Both the position numbers and the translations under genes were made by a program. A stretch of DNA of 52,964 nt from IMG/VR virus record IMGVR_UViG_3300037351_000019, positions 1-52,964 of that record. The stretch is one strand, 5' to 3'. The notes under the pieces are model-generated. The model had not been told where the DNA came from. It saw nothing but the letters and a program-made list of their open reading frames with translations, and searched no databases. This stretch comes from a virus. Below are positions 15,153-52,964 of the stretch, piece by piece; position 1 is the first letter of the stretch; the number at the start of each line of letters is the position of its first letter.

Positions 15153-15206
15153 AAACCCGCGTAATCATTGACGTTTCACCATGTCTTGCTTCGTCCGTCT
15201 AACTGT

Positions 15207-35662: not shown

Positions 35663-36270
35663 GCGATACTCCCTCGTCGCAACTGCACGCGAGACTTCGT
35701 GACGTCGCGGACGCGGTGAGATCACAGGCAAACGTCGCGGTCCCAAAACAGACGATCACTCGTCTCGTGTGGGCTGTGGTCGTCACGGTGAATGCGTACA
35801 CGGTCGACGTCGCTCCGGGCGGCGCGACGGACGGCTCGCAGTGGTCCGACGTTAGTTTTCAGGGTTGGTATCAGCCAACGGAGGGCGACAACGTTCTTGT
35901 CATGGTCGACGGGTCCGACCGAATAATTCTTGGGACGATGGCCGGCGCCGGTGGTGGGATTCAGTCGTCTTTGGCTTACGCGATACTTGGACCGATTCCC
36001 AATCAAACATTTCCCGGCGTATTCGTGCCGAGCGGCAATGCGTATGTCGTCGGTGCGAAGGGAAAGACGAGCGCGGGATCACTCACGATGAAAGTGCAAG
36101 TCAATGGTTCTGACGTCACGGGGCTGACTGGACTGAGCGTGACCACCTCCGCAACCGCGTGGACATGCACGCCATATCGGATCCCCAATCTGACGGAGGT
36201 TCGCGGGGTTTCGACGAGTTCAACCGGAACGGGTGATATGTCCTTCAGCATCCTGACCGCGACGGTCTAG
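35659..36270 (+). CDS. Tail-tip protein with OB-like domain
   Basis: Encodes 203 residues. A helical start (LHARLRDVADAVRSQANV) is followed by a beta-barrel (TRLVWAVVVTVNAYTVDVAP to DRIILGTMAG) of the kind found in central spike/OB-fold tip proteins, then a C-terminal beta domain (LTMKVQVNGSDVTG). It overlaps the hub gene by 4 bases. Likely part of the tail tip. Confidence 0.6.
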   Translation: MSDTPSSQLHARLRDVADAVRSQANVAVPKQTITRLVWAVVVTVNAYTVDVAPGGATDGSQWSDVSFQGWYQPTEGDNVLVMVDGSDRIILGTMAGAGGGIQSSLAYAILGPIPNQTFPGVFVPSGNAYVVGAKGKTSAGSLTMKVQVNGSDVTGLTGLSVTTSATAWTCTPYRIPNLTEVRGVSTSSTGTGDMSFSILTATV

Positions 36271-37199
36271 TGTCGACTCCGACCGAGACCTTACTTTCGA
36301 CGCCGTTCTCAGTCTCGCCCTATCAGCCCTACGCAATCTGTTCTGGCAGTGACGGGCGGCTCTGGTTCACCACGAGCGACGTCTACGTGGGTGCGATGAC
36401 GACCGCTGGCGTCGTGAGTACCTACTCGACCCCCGCACTCAGTGGTCAAGGACCGATCGTCGCGGGGCCTGACGGGAATCTCTGGATTCTCTATGGATAT
36501 GTCGGGGTCTACACCGATATCGCACAGGTCGACACCAGCGGGACGGTATTGAACACGTGGAACCTCACGACCGGTCTGGGAAGCCTCTGCGTCGGAGCGG
36601 ACGGGAACCTCTACGGAACGTCACCGACGACGAACGTCTTAGTACGAATAACCATGAGCGGCGTTCAGACCGCACTCACTGTCACCGGAGCGGTCGCGTT
36701 CGGTCAAGCGATCTGTTCGGCGGCCGACGGGAACTTAATGATCCCTCGCTACGTTCTTTCCTCGGTCTACGAGGTTGACCTCACTGGGACTTTGGTCGCC
36801 ACTTACACGGCCAGTGGTTTTGATGCTGCTGGGATTGCGTTGGGCGGCGACGGGAACTACTGGATCTCTGACGACAACAACGTGTGGCAGATGACGCCGA
36901 GCGGATCGTTCACGGACTTTCCTTCTTCTGGCACGCACGCCTACTACAACGTGGTCCCAACCGGTGATTCGATCTGGTTCACTACGTCAACGTCAGGGGA
37001 TAACTATGCGGCCCTGGTCAGTGACTACTCAGGGGATTTGACACAGGTCGAAATCACCGACGGCACACTCATCTACCCCGGCGGCTACGGCTCCTGTGTC
37101 GGACCGGATGGGAACCTCTACTTCACCGACTCGACCAATGACGTGATTTGGAAGGTCGGGATTTCCACGGGCGGCGCTCAGATAATCATGATGTTGTAG
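36270..37199 (+). CDS. Seven-bladed beta-propeller tail protein (Vgb/NHL-like)
   Basis: Encodes 309 residues from a GTG. Seven repeats of the blade motif are visible, each ending in a GPDGNLWF-type turn (SGSDGRLWFT, AGPDGNLWIL, VGADGNLYGT, SAADGNLMIP, GGDGNYWISD, PTGDSIWFTT, VGPDGNLYFT). This is the pattern of virginiamycin B lyase and NHL/SMP-30 propellers. No clear catalytic His/Glu set was found, so binding seems more likely than catalysis. As the last tail gene it may be a receptor-binding module. Confidence 0.7.
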   Translation: MSTPTETLLSTPFSVSPYQPYAICSGSDGRLWFTTSDVYVGAMTTAGVVSTYSTPALSGQGPIVAGPDGNLWILYGYVGVYTDIAQVDTSGTVLNTWNLTTGLGSLCVGADGNLYGTSPTTNVLVRITMSGVQTALTVTGAVAFGQAICSAADGNLMIPRYVLSSVYEVDLTGTLVATYTASGFDAAGIALGGDGNYWISDDNNVWQMTPSGSFTDFPSSGTHAYYNVVPTGDSIWFTTSTSGDNYAALVSDYSGDLTQVEITDGTLIYPGGYGSCVGPDGNLYFTDSTNDVIWKVGISTGGAQIIMML

Positions 37200-38797: not shown

Positions 38798-39298
38798 GTG
38801 AGTTGGCTTTCGCACCAATGGTTCACGTGGTGGTGGAGTTCGGACAAGGGCAATGGCCCCGAGAATATTCAGTGGACGATCCTTGCACTTATCGCCGCAT
38901 CATTCCTTATCCCCGCCGTGCGAAACTTCTTCAAACGGCTGGAGTCGAAGGTCGACCACGTAATCACCAACCACCCTGACATACCCGAATACGATGAGGC
39001 GAAGGCAGAATTCGAGAAGTGGGAACATTGGCTCGTGACGCTCGTCAAGAGCCTTTCGAAAAGGAGAAGCATGACCAAGAAGAATGACCGCAGGTTCGAA
39101 GCACTTCACGACAAGGTTGATGCAAATCACGCGGAGGTCTTGAAGCGACTGGAAGCGAACCAGACGAAGACGCAGAGTCTTCTCTTCGATCACCACGTCG
39201 ACACCATCGAGGCATTGAAGCCGAAGCCGCGCGTGAGAAAGCCTGTGAAGAAGGTCGCCAAAAAAGCGGCTCCTGCAAAGAAGGCGGCGAAGGGATGA
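38798..39298 (+). CDS. Holin-like membrane protein with Lys/Ala-rich tail
   Basis: Encodes 166 residues from a GTG. A Trp-rich N-terminus (HQWFTWWWSS), one membrane helix (about 25-43), a charged helical middle, and a C-terminal Lys/Ala tail (KKVAKKAAPAKKAAKG) resembling histone H1-like basic repeats. Actinophage holins often have this Trp-rich start plus single helix. The basic tail would bind acidic polymers or nucleic acid. Coupled by ATGA to the next gene. Confidence 0.55.
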   Translation: MSWLSHQWFTWWWSSDKGNGPENIQWTILALIAASFLIPAVRNFFKRLESKVDHVITNHPDIPEYDEAKAEFEKWEHWLVTLVKSLSKRRSMTKKNDRRFEALHDKVDANHAEVLKRLEANQTKTQSLLFDHHVDTIEALKPKPRVRKPVKKVAKKAAPAKKAAKG

Positions 39299-40257
39299 GC
39301 GACGAGATCGTAGCGGGCCGCGTTGGCCCCCACAAGGAGAGCCACGAACCCCGACTCAAGGCTCGAGACTTCCTCGTCGGTGTAACCCCGGTCCAGGGGT
39401 TCCTTGAGTGGGATGGGACGAAGGGAATCGGTGAGCGTTGGGGGATGCTCGGCAATGACGTGTTCGGCGATTGTGGGCCCGCGGCGACGTCGCACAACAA
39501 CATGGCGAAAGCCGGTAATCCGAGCATTGGCGGTGATCTAGGACGACCGAAGTTCAATGGCGTCGAAGGAACGTACTTCGCCTACGGCATCGCCCAAGGT
39601 GAACCGGGACCGGAGCCTGACGAGGGCGTGGACAACGCGACGTGGTTGGGTTTCCTCTACAAAGAGGGAATCATCTACGGCTACGGGGAAGTGGACGATG
39701 AAGAGTTCGACTGGTTCGCTCAGTTGTTCGACGGTGCGATCGTCGGTCAAGGTCTTGACGGTCAGATTGCCTCAAATGACTTCAACGCCTCCCCGAGAAT
39801 CCCGTGGGACACGATGGACCAACCGGACGGCCATGACACCTTGACGATCATCACGCACGCTGACGGCTCGGGCGCTCTCGTTACCTGGGGAGCAGTACAG
39901 CCCTACACGGCGGCATACCGAAGGACGAACTGGCAGGACCGTTGGGTCATCTTCGACGCCGACGACCCGAACATCGACCATGCCAAACTACAAGCCGCAC
40001 TCGCTGACGTTCACGGAACCGTCACGCCTACCGCGTCTACTCCCGCCAAGGAATCATTCCTCGAAGAGGTTCTTGACAAGGTGCGCGCTGAGTTCAAGGG
40101 TTTCGAGGAATCCAAGACCTTCGAGGCCGCTGAGAAGCGCGTGAAGGAACTCGAACAGGGTCTGCACAAGGCGATGGGCTTGGCGCTCTCTCGCGAGTCG
40201 GAGACGGTCATCCTTGACGTGCTGAAGCAAATAGTCGCTGACTACATCCGAGTGTGA
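39295..40257 (+). CDS. Papain-like (C39/C1-type) cysteine peptidase-like protein
   Basis: Encodes 320 residues. LGNDVFGDCGPAATSHN (about residues 51-67) gives a candidate nucleophile Cys followed by a helix, and DGHDTLTIITHADGS (about 177-191) gives the His on a strand. This is the Cys...His order of papain-like peptidases. The last 90 residues are helical. Proteins with this 'GNDxxGDC' motif are common in phages of actinobacteria, where the substrate is unknown. It follows the holin-like gene and overlaps the next peptidase-like gene. Confidence 0.55.
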   Translation: MSDEIVAGRVGPHKESHEPRLKARDFLVGVTPVQGFLEWDGTKGIGERWGMLGNDVFGDCGPAATSHNNMAKAGNPSIGGDLGRPKFNGVEGTYFAYGIAQGEPGPEPDEGVDNATWLGFLYKEGIIYGYGEVDDEEFDWFAQLFDGAIVGQGLDGQIASNDFNASPRIPWDTMDQPDGHDTLTIITHADGSGALVTWGAVQPYTAAYRRTNWQDRWVIFDADDPNIDHAKLQAALADVHGTVTPTASTPAKESFLEEVLDKVRAEFKGFEESKTFEAAEKRVKELEQGLHKAMGLALSRESETVILDVLKQIVADYIRV

Positions 40258-40748
40258 TCGCCGGCGACATTGGGTTTGCTCGCACGACGGGTGTGATGGG
40301 TCGACTGATACGTTTCGGAGAACTACTCAAAGGCAAACCCGGTAGCGAGTGGAATCATCAGTTCATCGTCGACCGACAGATTGACGGAGAGTGGTACATC
40401 ATCCAAGCAACCATGAGGGGCGTCACGGATACGGCGAAACTCGCTGACGTAGCTCCGGGTGGAAAGTACGTCACGATGTCACCGCCGACCGAATGCGACC
40501 GCGCGAAGATTCTGGAGTTCAATCGCGCACAGGTTGGGGATAAATATTCATTCCTGACGATCCTCTCGATCGCCTTCGACATCCTGACGTGGAACTTCGT
40601 CCCAGCGTTCATGAACTCCTATCGTCAGTCGTGGGTCTGCTCGGGCTTGGTGAATGAATCCATGCGTTACGCAGGCTGGTTACATGAATACATAAACGTA
40701 TACTTAGTCACCCCCCAACAGGGCTTCAACGCTCTGAAACCCCAATGA
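40254..40748 (+). CDS. Permuted NlpC/P60 (YiiX-like) protein
   Basis: Encodes 164 residues from a GTG. The start GDIGFARTTGVMGRLIRF, then WNHQFIVDR with a His near residue 35, and a Cys in SWVCSGLVNESMR near 128, is the His-before-Cys order of permuted papain/NlpC proteins. These hydrolyse amide bonds in peptides or lipids. The last codons and stop lie inside the left arm of the 19-bp inverted repeat that bounds the Ro60 cassette. Confidence 0.65.
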   Translation: MIAGDIGFARTTGVMGRLIRFGELLKGKPGSEWNHQFIVDRQIDGEWYIIQATMRGVTDTAKLADVAPGGKYVTMSPPTECDRAKILEFNRAQVGDKYSFLTILSIAFDILTWNFVPAFMNSYRQSWVCSGLVNESMRYAGWLHEYINVYLVTPQQGFNALKPQ

Positions 40749-40760
40749 TTTAGCGGGTTT
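40742..40760. repeat. 19-bp inverted repeat, left arm of the Ro60/Y RNA cassette
   Basis: CCAATGATTTAGCGGGTTT is the exact reverse complement of 42846-42864. The pairing stops at both ends of the arm. It includes the stop codon of the preceding gene. The two arms enclose 2.1 kb that contains only the Y RNA array and the Ro60 gene. Confidence 0.85.
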
Positions 40761-40766
40761 GGAGAT

Positions 40767-40800
40767 TTGTCACACAAACCGTAAACGGATGATGTATGAT
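40767..40800 (+). promoter_or_regulatory. Promoter of the Y RNA array (element 5) with TTGTCACACA site
   Basis: TATGAT at 40795-40800 in the shared context TGTATGAT is a -10 box. Transcription would start at about 40806, at the 5' end of the first predicted RNA stem. A perfect TTGTCACACA (40767-40776) covers the -35 region, and GATGA/TCATC arms (40788-40805) flank the -10 box. The protein that binds the small terminase region may therefore also act here. Confidence 0.65.
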
Positions 40801-40804
40801 TCAT

Positions 40805-40886
40805 CTCAGTTGTAAACGGGCCGGACGCTTAAGGGTTATCTTGATAATATCTCCCTCGGCGAACAACTCGTCTGTTTAGTTCTGAG
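40805..40886 (+). ncRNA. Y RNA-like RNA 1
   Basis: About 82 bases. The outer stem is CTCAG (40805-40809) with CTGAG (40882-40886) and TAAAC (40813-40817) with GTTTA (40874-40878), separated by a 3x3 loop. Inside lies a conserved GGGCCGG (40818-40824), an inner hairpin (40827-40860, with GGG/CCC and TTAT/ATAA around a CTTG loop) and GAACAACTCGTCT on the 3' side. The order 'GGGYCGG, hairpin, AACACTCRTCT-like' is shared with the next two RNAs. No tRNA-like part is present. Confidence 0.75.
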
Positions 40887-40892
40887 AAGTGA

Positions 40893-40963
40893 AGATGGGT
40901 CGGCTGCTTGACGGTTATCAACTGCTAATTGAAAAAATACCGTTGGCAAACACTCATCCATCT
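40893..40963 (+). ncRNA. Y RNA-like RNA 2
   Basis: About 71 bases. The outer stem is AGATGG (40893-40898) with CCATCT (40958-40963). Inside: GGGTCGGC (40897-40904), a 9-bp stem with one bulge (40906-40915 with 40939-40947) capped by CAA/TTG, then AAACACTCATC (40948-40958). The last motif is identical to 41096-41106 in RNA 3. Only 6 bases separate it from RNA 1 and 10 from RNA 3. Confidence 0.75.
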
Positions 40964-40973
40964 GAACTCTCAA

Positions 40974-41119
40974 GATGTGAAATGCGGGTCGGCTTCAAAG
41001 GGTTATCCATCTTAAGGAAGAGGTCGCTGGTTCGAGTCCAGTCAGCCGCGCAAGTGGTTGTAGCTCAGTTGGTTAGAGCGCTTAATCCCCTTTGGAAACA
41101 CTCATCTGCACTGCACATC
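40974..41119 (+). ncRNA. Y RNA-like RNA 3 with a permuted tRNA-like domain
   Basis: About 146 bases. The outer stem is GATGTG (40974-40979) with CACATC (41114-41119). The shared module follows: GGGTCGGC (40986-40993), 9-bp stem 40994-41002 with 41088-41096, then AACACTCATCT. The distal part mimics tRNA in permuted order. A 5-bp anticodon-like stem joins 41012-41016 to 41081-41085. The T-arm (41026-41042, loop TTCGAGT) leads to a 7-bp acceptor-like stem (41043-41049 with 41054-41060) closed by a GCAA tetraloop. TA (41061-41062) and a D-arm follow (41063-41079, GCTC/GAGC with GG in the loop). Bacterial Y RNAs near Ro60 genes are known to carry such tRNA mimics. Confidence 0.88.
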
Positions 41120-41129
41120 GTTCTGATCA

Positions 41130-41153
41130 GTCGGGGCTCGTCAAACCCACGAC
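41130..41153 (+). other. Hairpin between the Y RNA array and the Ro60 gene
   Basis: GTCGGGG (41130-41136) pairs with CCC (41146-41148) and CGAC (41150-41153), with one bulged A and a 9-base loop. It ends just before the ribosome-binding site of the Ro60 gene. It could act as a partial terminator, a processing site or a translation control element. Confidence 0.6.
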
Positions 41154-41168
41154 ATGAAAGGAACACCG

Positions 41169-42761
41169 ATGACGAATTACCTGAAGCACATCACCGAGAC
41201 ACCGCAGACCGAAGCAATCCCCGGCCGAGAAGACGCGATGAAGTTGAACCACGCTGGCGGCTACTCATTCCAAGTCGACGACTGGGCGCGTCTCAATCGC
41301 TTCCTGATCCTCGGAACTGAAGGCGGCACGTACTACGTCGGTGAAGGAAAACTGACGCGCGAGAATGCCGGCGTCGTCTTGCGTTGCATAAAGCAGGACG
41401 GTATTCGCGTCGTGAATCGAATCGTCGAAGTCTCGGACCAGGGACTTGCGCCGAAGAATGACCCCGCAATCTTCGCTCTTGCGTTGTGTGCGAAGAACGG
41501 CGACGACGCAACTCGTTCACTGGCCTACAGATCAGTTCCGAAGGTCTGTCGAATCGGGACGCACTTGTTCCAGTTTGCGGAGTGCATCAACGAACTCGGC
41601 GGATGGGGTCGCGGCGCGCGTAAGGCTGTCGCTTCGTGGTACACGGAGAGGGAGCCCGAGAAGTTGGCCTACCAGTTGGTGAAGTACCGCCAGCGCAACG
41701 GGTGGTCACATCGGGACTTGCTTCGACTCTCGCATCCGAAGGCCACCGACGACGATCACGCGCTGTTGCTTCGCTACGCTGCCGGCAAGATCGAAGGTGC
41801 CACAGGTGGAGAGTTACCCAACATCATCACCGCCTACGAGTTTGCCAAGACCGCAACCATTGCTCAGACGGTGAGCCTCATAGAGGACTTCGACATGCCT
41901 CGCGAGTGCGTGAACACGGAATACCTGAACGACCCGAAGGTTCTCGAGGCGTTGCTTCAGAACATGCCGACGACCGCGCTCATCCGCAATCTCGGCAACC
42001 TCACGAAGGCCGGTGTCTTGACACCGTTCTCAGATGGAACGAAGCGAGCTATTGAACTACTCACCAACGCCGAGTCAATCCAAAAGTCTCGCGTTCACCC
42101 AATGGCGATCTATCTCGCGATGATTACCTACGGCTCGGGCCACGGTGATCGAGGACGGGGAGAATGGACGCCGGTGCAAGAGGTCATGGGGGCGCTTGAC
42201 AACGCCTTCTACGCTTCCATGCCGAACGTCGTCCCGAGCGGTAAGCGAGTGCTGTTCGCTCTTGATACCTCGGGTTCGATGGGCGGTGGGTACGGAACTG
42301 GCCGAGGGTACGACGCTCCCATCGCCAAGGCCGCAGCGATGGCGCTCATTGCAGCCAAGACCGAACCTCGCAGCATGATCATCGGCGTTGACACCGGAGT
42401 CCAGCAGGTCGGGATTCATCCGAACATGCGACTCGATGACGCCATCAAAGAGGCCGGTCGTCACGGTGGCGGCGGGACGTATCTCTCGTTGCCGTATCGC
42501 GCACTCATGGCTCAGAAGTACGACGTTGATGGGGTAGTTGTCTACACCGACTGCGAGACGTGGGCCGGTCGTGGTCATCCCTCACAGGCGTTGAATGAGT
42601 ACCGACGTTCCGTTGGTCACGAAGTCAGAAACGTCATCGCGTCAATGACGGCGACGAGCCATTCGGTCGGTGACGTGGAAGACCCGTTGACGTTGCAGTG
42701 TGTGGGCTTAGACGCGAGTCTCCCGCAGACGATAAGCCAGTTCATCGGCGGTCAATTCTGA
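41169..42761 (+). CDS. rsr: Ro60 ortholog (TROVE plus von Willebrand A domain)
   Basis: Encodes 530 residues. The ATG at 41169 is chosen because GAAAGGAA lies 5 bases upstream; an ATG at 41154 lies before that site. Residues about 1-350 are the helical TROVE ring (NHAGGYSFQVDDWARLNRFL, QLVKYRQRNGWSHRDLLRLS). Residues about 355-530 are the von Willebrand A domain with MIDAS residues DTSGSM (366-371), T437 and D461 in YTDCETW. Ro60 rings bind Y RNA on the outside and misfolded RNA ends in the hole. In Deinococcus, Y RNA tethers Ro60 to polynucleotide phosphorylase. Three Y RNA-like RNAs are encoded directly upstream. Confidence 0.93.
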   Translation: MTNYLKHITETPQTEAIPGREDAMKLNHAGGYSFQVDDWARLNRFLILGTEGGTYYVGEGKLTRENAGVVLRCIKQDGIRVVNRIVEVSDQGLAPKNDPAIFALALCAKNGDDATRSLAYRSVPKVCRIGTHLFQFAECINELGGWGRGARKAVASWYTEREPEKLAYQLVKYRQRNGWSHRDLLRLSHPKATDDDHALLLRYAAGKIEGATGGELPNIITAYEFAKTATIAQTVSLIEDFDMPRECVNTEYLNDPKVLEALLQNMPTTALIRNLGNLTKAGVLTPFSDGTKRAIELLTNAESIQKSRVHPMAIYLAMITYGSGHGDRGRGEWTPVQEVMGALDNAFYASMPNVVPSGKRVLFALDTSGSMGGGYGTGRGYDAPIAKAAAMALIAAKTEPRSMIIGVDTGVQQVGIHPNMRLDDAIKEAGRHGGGGTYLSLPYRALMAQKYDVDGVVVYTDCETWAGRGHPSQALNEYRRSVGHEVRNVIASMTATSHSVGDVEDPLTLQCVGLDASLPQTISQFIGGQF

Positions 42762-42790
42762 TAGGGTAGTCGCATCGCCTTCGGGTGGTA

Positions 42791-42837
42791 ACTTCCCCTC
42801 CAGGAAGTGATGAAGCGGGGTCTTCGGGGCCCCGTTT
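42791..42837 (+). terminator. Double-hairpin terminator after the Ro60 gene
   Basis: A first 6-bp hairpin (ACTTCC 42791-42796 with GGAAGT 42803-42808) is followed by a GC-rich stem (42816-42822 with 42828-42834, loop TTCGG) and TTT. It ends the Ro60 transcript just before the right arm of the inverted repeat. Confidence 0.8.
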
Positions 42838-42845
42838 CGTCGCGT

Positions 42846-42864
42846 AAACCCGCTAAATCATTGG
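42846..42864. repeat. 19-bp inverted repeat, right arm of the Ro60/Y RNA cassette
   Basis: AAACCCGCTAAATCATTGG, the exact reverse complement of 40742-40760. It lies 9 bases after the terminator and 37 bases before promoter element 3. No transposase, recombinase or target duplication was found beside either arm. Confidence 0.85.
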
Positions 42865-52370: not shown

Positions 52371-52964
52371 AAGAGGAAACCATTATCCCCAACCAACTGC
52401 CGCGACTCTCGTCAGGAAAGCAGAACCCTGGCTCAGGAAACGTCTGTGCTGAACAGGCTATTTCGTGGCTCGTCTCAGGACGGCTCGATCTAGGAGACGA
52501 AACAGATACCCCCGACTGCGTAAATCCTGTGTTGAACAAATTGGCGATCACCGTGAACGACTCAATCTCAAATGAACGACGTCACGAGATGTGGCCGATT
52601 CTCTTGCGCCAACCTGGAACTGCGCACCCTGACATGGAGCCGATCCTGTCGATTCGACTCGCGTGTTTCTTGGCTGAGAAGGTTCTGTATCTCGTGCCCG
52701 AAGCGGACTGGGAGGTCTGTCGAGACGCGATTGTGTCCGCGCAAGTGTACTGCGACAATCCGACGAAGGAAACCGCCACCAACGCCGCCGCCTACGCCTA
52801 CGCCGCCACCAACGCCGCCGCCTACGCCAACGCCGCCGCCTACGCCGCCGCCCGCACCAACGCCGCCGCCAACGCCGCCGCCTACGCCGCCGCCGCCACC
52901 AACGCCGCCACCAACGCCGCCGCCTACGCCACCGCCGCCACCAACGCCGCCGCCAACGCCGCCA
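52367..52964 (+). CDS. Ala-rich helical repeat protein, N-terminal part (continues at position 1)
   Basis: The start overlaps the previous stop (ATGA); the frame is open to the right edge and resumes at base 3 of the window. Residues 1-115 form a helical domain (SGNVCAEQAISWLVSGRLDL, ILSIRLACFLAEKVLYLVPE) with several Cys. From about residue 137 the chain is Ala with Asn, Thr and Tyr at short intervals (units such as TNAAAYA, NAAAYAAA). Long Ala-rich helices with spaced polar or aromatic residues are seen in Imm5-like proteins and in type I antifreeze proteins; neither function is shown. The repeat here is 35 codons longer than in the left-hand copy. Confidence 0.8.
   Translation, partial: MKEETIIPNQLPRLSSGKQNPGSGNVCAEQAISWLVSGRLDLGDETDTPDCVNPVLNKLAITVNDSISNERRHEMWPILLRQPGTAHPDMEPILSIRLACFLAEKVLYLVPEADWEVCRDAIVSAQVYCDNPTKETATNAAAYAYAATNAAAYANAAAYAAARTNAAANAAAYAAAATNAATNAAAYATAATNAAANAA
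52713..52964. repeat. Right copy of the terminal direct repeat with GCC-rich coding repeat
   Basis: 52713-52792 equals 1-80 and 52889-52964 equals 72-147. The 105 bases in addition here are further units of the same imperfect 9-15-bp coding repeat (GCC, AAC, TAC and ACC codons). Confidence 0.9.

What the first reader, a model, noticed from the sequence alone, without database searches (positions are those of the whole stretch)
40742..42864. Phage-borne Ro60 with a tandem array of three Y RNA-like RNAs, one a permuted tRNA mimic
Directly seen: a TROVE-vWA gene preceded by three adjacent foldable units. All three share a GGGYCGG motif, an inner hairpin and an AACACTCRTCT-like 3' motif inside a closing stem. 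The third unit carries T-arm, 7-bp acceptor-like stem closed by a GCAA tetraloop, UA and D-arm in permuted order. Established: bacterial and some phage Ro60 genes lie next to Y RNAs, at least one of which mimics tRNA, and in Deinococcus Y RNA links Ro60 to polynucleotide phosphorylase. Inference: this phage carries a complete RNA-surveillance or RNA-decay module that could reprogramme host RNases. The compact three-RNA array from one promoter is the unusual part.
Basis: partly seen in the sequence, partly recalled or inferred. Interest (0 to 1): 0.92.

Follow-up and report, generated by a model that had tools for sequence, protein, structure and literature searches.

The report
Phage Ro60 with three Y RNAs
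A phage carries a small self-contained operon for the RNA-binding ring protein Ro60 and three of its partner Y RNAs, one of them shaped like a rearranged tRNA; the parts are real, but such arrays turn out to be the normal arrangement around Ro60 genes in phages and bacteria, so it is a good new example rather than a new kind of system.

Summary
A TROVE-vWA (Ro60/Rsr) gene (41169-42761) follows three tandem Y RNA units: U1 (about 40807-40884), U2 (40884-40971) and U3 (40974-41119). Covariance models built from other loci, with this window held out, find exactly these three in the 53-kb genome: U1 E=2.6e-9, U2 E=1.2e-4, U3 E=9.3e-22. Rfam's YrlA model also matches U3 end to end (39 bits, below its cut-off of 69). 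The stems covary strongly among relatives.

The part called unusual is ordinary. Of 87 distinct viral Ro60 loci, 58 have two or more units, 40 have three or more, and the largest has 11. Of 80 cellular loci, 58 have two or more and 39 have three or more. Phage Ro60 genes and the YrlA tRNA mimic were already known.

The most likely role is a phage Ro60 RNP in which U3 tethers a host tRNA-binding factor or PNPase, and U1 and U2 gate or occupy the ring. Partner and function are inferred; the phage has no PNPase, RtcB or RNA ligase of its own.

The parts
40742..40760 (+). 19-bp element CCAATGATTTAGCGGGTTT, left copy of a perfect inverted repeat; probably a promoter-associated regulatory site
   Evidence: exact copy inverted at 42846-42864 and a 3-mismatch copy at 15153-15171; 0 expected in shuffles. 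Each copy lies 35-39 bp upstream of a TATGAT hexamer
40766..40778 (.). operator-like palindrome TTTGTCACACAAA
   Evidence: pattern TTTGTnnnACAAA occurs at 2712, 3950, 16505 and 40766
40793..40801 (+). predicted -10 region TGTATGATT of the Y RNA/Ro60 transcript (start predicted about 40806-40808)
   Evidence: five exact copies, all +, 0.12 expected; this copy lacks the CATAC half-site of the other four. Transcription start not shown
40807..40884 (+). U1: short Y RNA. Outer helix 40814-40821/40870-40877, inner helix 40827-40835/40853-40860, GGUUAUC at 40834
   Evidence: R1 47.8 bits, E=2.6e-9, window held out of the model; fold
40884..40971 (+). U2: short Y RNA. Outer helix 40893-40900/40956-40963, inner helix 40906-40914/40940-40947, GGUUAUC at 40913
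   Evidence: R1 28.6 bits, E=1.2e-4; fold z -3.8
40974..41119 (+). U3: YrlA-type Y RNA with permuted tRNA-like payload (T-arm 41026-41042, acceptor-like hairpin 41043-41060 with GCAA loop, UA 41061-41062, D-arm 41063-41079), GGUUAUC at 41001
   Evidence: R2 96 bits, E=9.3e-22, window held out; Rfam YrlA full-length match, 39 bits; fold z -2.8
41169..42761 (+). Ro60/Rsr protein, 530 aa (alternative upstream ATG 41154, 535 aa): TROVE ring plus vWA domain with intact MIDAS residues
   Evidence: Pfam TROVE 9.8e-44 and vWA_Ro60 1.1e-34; PDB 1yvp 1.5e-101 and 2nvo 9.9e-101; PHROG_850
42809..42841 (+). 15-bp hairpin, probable terminator of the module
   Evidence: fold -25.6 kcal/mol, z -5.9; no long U-tract
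42846..42864 (-). right copy of the 19-bp element, upstream of the next promoter (TGTATGATT 42901)

Best explanation
This is a self-contained phage Ro60 ribonucleoprotein operon: promoter, two short Y RNAs, one YrlA-type tRNA-mimic Y RNA, Ro60 gene, terminator. Shown by computation: the protein is a full-length Ro60 and all three RNAs carry the same covarying Ro60-docking architecture (outer helix, YCGR internal loop, inner helix, UUAUC). Inferred: the transcript is processed into separate Y RNAs. Each docks on the outside of the one phage Ro60 ring through its outer helix and internal loops. The apical part is the payload. The tRNA-like payload of U3 recruits a host factor that handles tRNA, most likely PNPase as in the Deinococcus and Salmonella RYPER complexes, so that structured or misfolded RNA is fed through Ro60 to the nuclease. 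The loop-only U1 and U2 occupy or gate the ring and set how much Ro60 is free. The module is probably expressed in its own phase, because its promoter shares the -10 of other phage promoters but not their CATAC operator half-site. (What it is: about 0.97; the tethering mechanism: about 0.6.)
For: Protein similarity over the full length to Xenopus Ro60 and D. radiodurans Rsr; MIDAS residues D371, S373, S375, T442, D466 and docking-helix residues K177, R181, H194 conserved among 14 phage Ro60s. Independent model hits to U1-U3 and to nothing else in the window. Compensatory changes in outer, inner, T-arm and acceptor-like helices. GGTTAYC cores are 8.3 times denser upstream of viral Ro60 genes than elsewhere on the same strand, and 70% of such cores sit in the two-helix geometry better than the 95th percentile of shuffled flanks. 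All 161 R1 hits in viral loci lie on the Ro60 strand. Docking loops are alike within arrays (z -8.6 and -12.8) while apical loops are not (z 0.1), as expected of several payloads for one protein. Literature: YrlA tethers Rsr to PNPase and is modified by TruB and DusA (PMC8394870; PMC9879122).
Against: No RNA, protein or complex has been seen from this phage. No nuclease partner is encoded, and PNPase binding by a phage Y RNA is untested. 29 of 87 viral loci have at most one detected unit and 19 have none, so an array is not essential to a viral Ro60, or the models miss units there. Docking motif distance does not track overall Ro60 distance between loci (Mantel r 0.09, p 0.15). The within-array likeness of docking loops may partly reflect common descent by duplication.
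Confidence: 0.6

Rival explanations
1. The tRNA-like U3 is a decoy or competitive inhibitor that protects tRNAs or translation from host tRNA-cleaving defences or toxins; Ro60 mainly stabilises the decoy RNA.
For: U3 keeps the T- and D-arms and an acceptor-like stem but no anticodon arm, so it could be bound without being cut at an anticodon. Salmonella YrlA is not cut by the SOS anticodon nuclease, and its tRNA-like domain was proposed as a competitive inhibitor (PMC7790460). In several phages Ro60 lies inside or beside tRNA clusters.
Against: This phage has no tRNA genes and no RtcB or RNA ligase. The same array type is as common in cellular genomes, so a purely anti-defence role is not favoured.
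Confidence: 0.17
2. The units act mainly in cis: the three hairpins are the leader of the ro60 mRNA, and Ro60 binding to them regulates its own synthesis or stabilises its transcript. Free Y RNAs are secondary.
For: No + strand promoter-like site found between the units and the gene; the last unit ends 57 nt before ATG 41169 and units are spaced 15 and 17 nt; all short units are on the Ro60 strand.
Against: Fifteen viral loci have units downstream of Ro60 and some arrays lie far from it. Known bacterial Y RNAs act as free RNAs. Strong conservation of the tRNA-like payload is not needed for a leader.
Confidence: 0.12
3. The module is an RNA or tRNA repair platform, as in the rsr-yrlBA-rtcBA operon, handing damaged tRNA to a ligase.
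For: Bacterial Rsr/Yrl genes often neighbour rtcBA (PMC7790460), and jumbo-phage TROVE proteins were discussed as a repair platform (PMC7824862).
Against: No RtcB or RNA_ligase family match anywhere in this genome; a host enzyme would have to do it.
Confidence: 0.07
4. The units are decayed tRNA genes or chance hairpins without function.
For: Annotation pipelines call such units tRNAs in other phages (a 'tRNA-Thr' in prophiGD43A-5 overlaps one).
Against: Permuted arm order kept in dozens of divergent loci with compensatory changes; E=9.3e-22 for U3 with an independent model.
Confidence: 0.02

Closest known systems
YrlA (Rfam RF02553), bacterial tRNA-mimic Y RNA
   Same: Same order of parts: Y stem, T-arm, acceptor-like hairpin, D-arm, Y stem; full-length alignment to the model
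   Different: Score 39 bits, below Rfam's gathering score of 69; accompanied by two units without the tRNA-like part
Salmonella rsr-yrlBA-rtcBA operon
   Same: Ro60/Rsr with two Y RNAs, at least one a tRNA mimic, in one operon (PMC9879122, PMC7790460)
   Different: There the RNAs follow rsr and rtcBA is attached; here three RNAs precede ro60 and no RtcB is present
Deinococcus radiodurans Rsr / Y RNA / PNPase (RYPER)
   Same: Rsr homologue with E=9.9e-101 to 2nvo; Y RNA next to the gene
   Different: PNPase must be the host's; tethering not shown here
Actinobacteriophage 'Ro-like RNA binding protein' loci (e.g. BearBQ, Cashline, FuzzBuster, Sparky, prophiGD43A-5, mycobacteriophage I3)
   Same: Ro60 about 37-44% identical, with two or more Y units close by
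   Different: Units not annotated, or annotated as tRNA; docking loops differ between phages
Listeria phage CKA15 putative Rsr and abundant small RNAs
   Same: Published proposal of a phage Rsr with Y RNAs scaffolding a ribonuclease (PMC12282133)
   Different: Different host and phage; there the RNAs were seen by transcriptomics, and their being Y RNAs was offered as one possible explanation

Membership tests
Ro60/Rsr (TROVE-vWA) | TROVE ring domain and C-terminal vWA domain in one protein | tested here: met
   PF05731 9.8e-44, PF25045 1.1e-34; full-length match to 1yvp and 2nvo
Ro60/Rsr (TROVE-vWA) | MIDAS residues DxSxS...T...D of the vWA domain | tested here: met
   D371, S373, S375, T442, D466 present and invariant among 14 phage Ro60s
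Ro60/Rsr (TROVE-vWA) | Y RNA-contact residues equivalent to Xenopus K170, R174, H187 (role recalled from Stein et al. 2005) | tested here: met
   K177 and R181 invariant, H194 nearly so; aligned with 1yvp
Ro60/Rsr (TROVE-vWA) | binds Y RNA and misfolded RNA | not testable with these tools
   needs pull-down or gel shift
Bacterial Y RNA | encoded next to ro60 on the same strand | tested here: met
   core of U3 ends 57 nt before ATG 41169
Bacterial Y RNA | conserved Ro60-docking stem with internal loop and UUAUC motif, supported by covariation | tested here: met
   U1 2.6e-9, U2 1.2e-4, U3 9.3e-22
Bacterial Y RNA | expressed small RNA bound by Ro60 | not testable with these tools
   no expression data
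YrlA (RF02553), U3 only | tRNA-like module with T-arm, acceptor-like stem and D-arm in permuted order | tested here: met
YrlA (RF02553), U3 only | reaches Rfam gathering score of 69 bits | tested here: not met
   39 bits. Other phage YrlA-type units score 26-52 bits, also below it, so the cut-off excludes this clade; the architecture is met, the curated threshold is not
RYPER (Ro60-Y RNA-PNPase) | Y RNA tethers Ro60 to PNPase | not testable with these tools
   no PNPase in the phage; a host enzyme would be needed
rsr-yrl-rtcBA RNA repair operon | RtcB ligase in the same operon | tested here: not met
   no RtcB and no RNA_ligase family match in the genome

The most novel reading that the evidence does not exclude
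Phage (and bacterial) Ro60 arrays are multi-adaptor cassettes: one Ro60 docking element is kept constant across the units of an array while apical payloads diversify, so that one ring protein can be coupled to several different partners or gates, here two loop-type and one tRNA-type. A phage could thus choose among host RNA-processing partners during infection.
Probability: 0.25. Interest if true: 0.65.

Novelty: new member of a known kind. Interest (0 to 1): 0.4.

Why it matters
It adds a well-defined, compact phage example of a conserved RNA-quality-control RNP whose role in infection is unknown. The survey shows that mixed arrays of short and tRNA-mimic Y RNAs are the usual surroundings of Ro60 in phages and bacteria, that Rfam's YrlA cut-off misses the phage clade, and that the constant docking site with variable payloads makes testable predictions about why several Y RNAs are kept. 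If the tethering reading is right, phages use Ro60 to redirect host RNA decay.

Tried and rejected
Single-sequence Ro60 query in viral contigs found nothing; an alignment query gave 286 relatives, 80 kept. Close relatives of this phage were sought through the Gp3-like protein and gene 39295-40254: none, and one fragment, so no comparison with a sister phage lacking the module was possible. Mobile-element reading of the 19-bp inverted repeat: judged less likely, because a third copy and all three distances to TATGAT point to promoter-linked sites, but not excluded. Anti-phage defence assignment: no PADLOC match for Ro60 and the two genes upstream. Co-evolution of docking motif with Ro60 at large distances: not significant, though the two nearest Ro60s (L018, L019) share the GGTCGG...CTCATC dock. 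Invertible segment: not pursued, since the promoter lies inside the repeats and would turn with the module. The key papers (Chen 2014, Sim and Wolin 2018, Wang 2018) are not held, so whether multi-unit arrays were already counted there could not be checked. The first MAFFT alignment of short units (A2) was shifted by one column in the 3' arm and was replaced by units of equal geometry (A4).
Full report
What is there. The window is a whole or nearly whole phage genome (virus record of 52,964 bases; its ends share an exact 80-bp direct repeat followed by degenerate tandem repeats). It has phage terminase and portal genes, and the portal gene's nearest relatives, about 30% identical, are in actinobacteriophages. 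At 41169-42761 lies a 530-aa protein with TROVE and Ro60-type vWA domains, matching Xenopus Ro60 (1yvp, E=1.5e-101) and Deinococcus Rsr (2nvo, 9.9e-101) over almost its full length. MIDAS residues and the helix that contacts Y RNA in Xenopus Ro60 are conserved (the role of K170/R174/H187 is recalled, not tested).

The three RNAs. Upstream lie three hairpins that nearly touch: U1 (40807-40884), U2 (40884-40971), U3 (40974-41119). Each has an outer helix, a short internal loop (CGGA or CGGC), an inner helix ending in GG, then UUAUC. U3 has in addition a T-arm, a 7-bp acceptor-like hairpin closed by GCAA, UA and a D-arm, in that order. Rfam's YrlA model aligns to U3 from end to end at 39 bits, E=3.8e-7, below the gathering score of 69; comparable units of other phages also fall below it. 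The permuted order is therefore the standard YrlA order, not a peculiarity.

More than chance. I collected Ro60 loci from annotated phages and 80 from viral contigs. GGTTAYC cores are 8.3 times denser in the 1500 bases upstream of Ro60 than elsewhere on that strand. For 70% of these cores, the two-helix geometry scores above the 95th percentile of shuffled flanks. From units outside the window I aligned 21 short units (A4) and 26 tRNA-like units (A3). In A4, 15 of 17 pairs change on both sides; covariation score 0.933 against 0.266 shuffled and at most 0.19 for slid registers. The units of A4 were picked with the help of their pairing, so one search is the cleaner test. In A3, 19 of 25 pairs have compensatory changes, including the outer helix and the acceptor-like stem. 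Models built from these alignments, with the window held out, hit U1 (E=2.6e-9), U2 (1.2e-4) and U3 (9.3e-22) and nothing else of note in the window. A sequence-only model scores U1 and U2 lower in bits (29.2 and 17.8).

Arrays are the rule. Joining hits of both models at E<=0.01, 68 of 87 distinct viral loci have at least one unit, 58 have two or more, 40 three or more, with a maximum of 11; 46 loci carry both classes. In 80 cellular loci from many phyla the figures are 72, 58 and 39, with a maximum of 7; 47 carry both classes. All 161 short-unit hits in the viral loci are on the Ro60 strand. The median gap between units is 19 nt (15 and 17 in the window), and the class order short-short-tRNA-like of the window is found in three other viral loci. 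The claim that a three-RNA array is the unusual part therefore fails. The loci were chosen by closeness to phage Ro60s, so these are not unbiased frequencies.

A pattern across arrays. In 116 units of 47 loci, the docking loops are much more alike within an array than between arrays (distance 0.24 against 0.47 on the 5' side, z -8.6; 0.30 against 0.55 on the 3' side, z -12.8), while eight bases of the apical loop are no more alike within than between (0.735 against 0.733, z 0.1). The inner stem lies in between (z -5.4). This is what one expects if all units of an array serve one Ro60 but carry different payloads. Shared descent with selection on the dock only is the same thing seen from the other side. 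The docking motif does not follow overall Ro60 distance between loci (Mantel r 0.09, p 0.15), though the two nearest Ro60s share the window's dock.

Transcription unit. TGTATGATT occurs five times exactly, all on + (0.12 expected). Four copies are part of GTATGATTnnnCATAC; the one before U1 (40793) lacks CATAC and is preceded by TTTGTCACACAAA. A start near 40807 would begin the RNA at U1. A 15-bp hairpin at 42809-42841 (z -5.9) follows Ro60. The unit is bounded by a perfect 19-bp inverted repeat whose third copy (15153, 3 mismatches) also lies upstream of a TGTATGATT; I read it as a regulatory site.

How it most likely works. Known from literature: bacterial Rsr binds the basal stem of Yrl RNAs, the YrlA tRNA-like domain binds PNPase and is modified by TruB and DusA, and the complex favours decay of structured RNA (PMC8394870, PMC4726728, PMC9879122). 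By analogy, phage Ro60 with U3 would borrow a host tRNA-binding factor or PNPase, while U1 and U2 gate the ring. The phage has no RNase PH-family (PNPase), RtcB or RNA_ligase protein, so partners are the host's. The decoy rival (tRNA-like domain as inhibitor of tRNA nucleases, suggested for Salmonella in PMC7790460) cannot be excluded.

Novelty. 341 phage records already encode Ro60 relatives, mostly annotated as such. Likely Y RNAs near Ro60 in bacteria and phages, and tRNA mimicry, were reported by Chen et al. 2014 (recalled; cited in PMC12282133), and a phage Rsr with Y RNAs was proposed for Listeria phage CKA15 (PMC12282133). The finding is a new, well-supported member of a known kind.

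Noticed in passing
548, 15207, 42902, 49407 (and 40793 without the right half): GTATGATTnnnCATAC palindrome overlapping a -10 hexamer in four + strand sites: probably the operator/promoter set of this phage.
   Followed up: partly
2712, 3950, 16505, 40766: TTTGTnnnACAAA palindromes, three of them TTTGTCACACAAA or its reverse complement; another operator-like element.
   Followed up: partly
15153-15171, 40742-40760, 42846-42864: 19-bp element CCAATGATTTAGCGGGTTT, perfect inverted repeat around the Ro60 unit plus a diverged third copy.
   Followed up: partly
1-80 and 52713-52792: Exact 80-bp direct repeat at the genome ends, followed by GCCGCC-ACCAAC type tandem repeats that differ between the ends.
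   Followed up: partly
L008 2962-3040 (prophiGD43A-5): Annotated tRNA-Thr overlaps a YrlA-type Y RNA unit; a likely misannotation in a published prophage record. Others ('tRNA-Asn' in SM23 L012 2624-2690, 'tRNA-OTHER' in Trina L013 1655-1863) overlap units too.
   Followed up: partly
L010 4697-5035, L017 4462-4799 (Gordonia phages Sixama, BlueNGold): YrlA-type units lie inside the phage tRNA cluster downstream of Ro60, apart from the units upstream.
   Followed up: no
L051 (IMGVR_UViG_3300020020_000028): Eleven Y units upstream of one viral Ro60 gene, the largest array seen.
   Followed up: no
36270-37199: Protein of the virginiamycin B lyase / beta-propeller family (PF24684) among the tail-end genes; by position perhaps a structural propeller rather than a resistance enzyme.
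   Followed up: no
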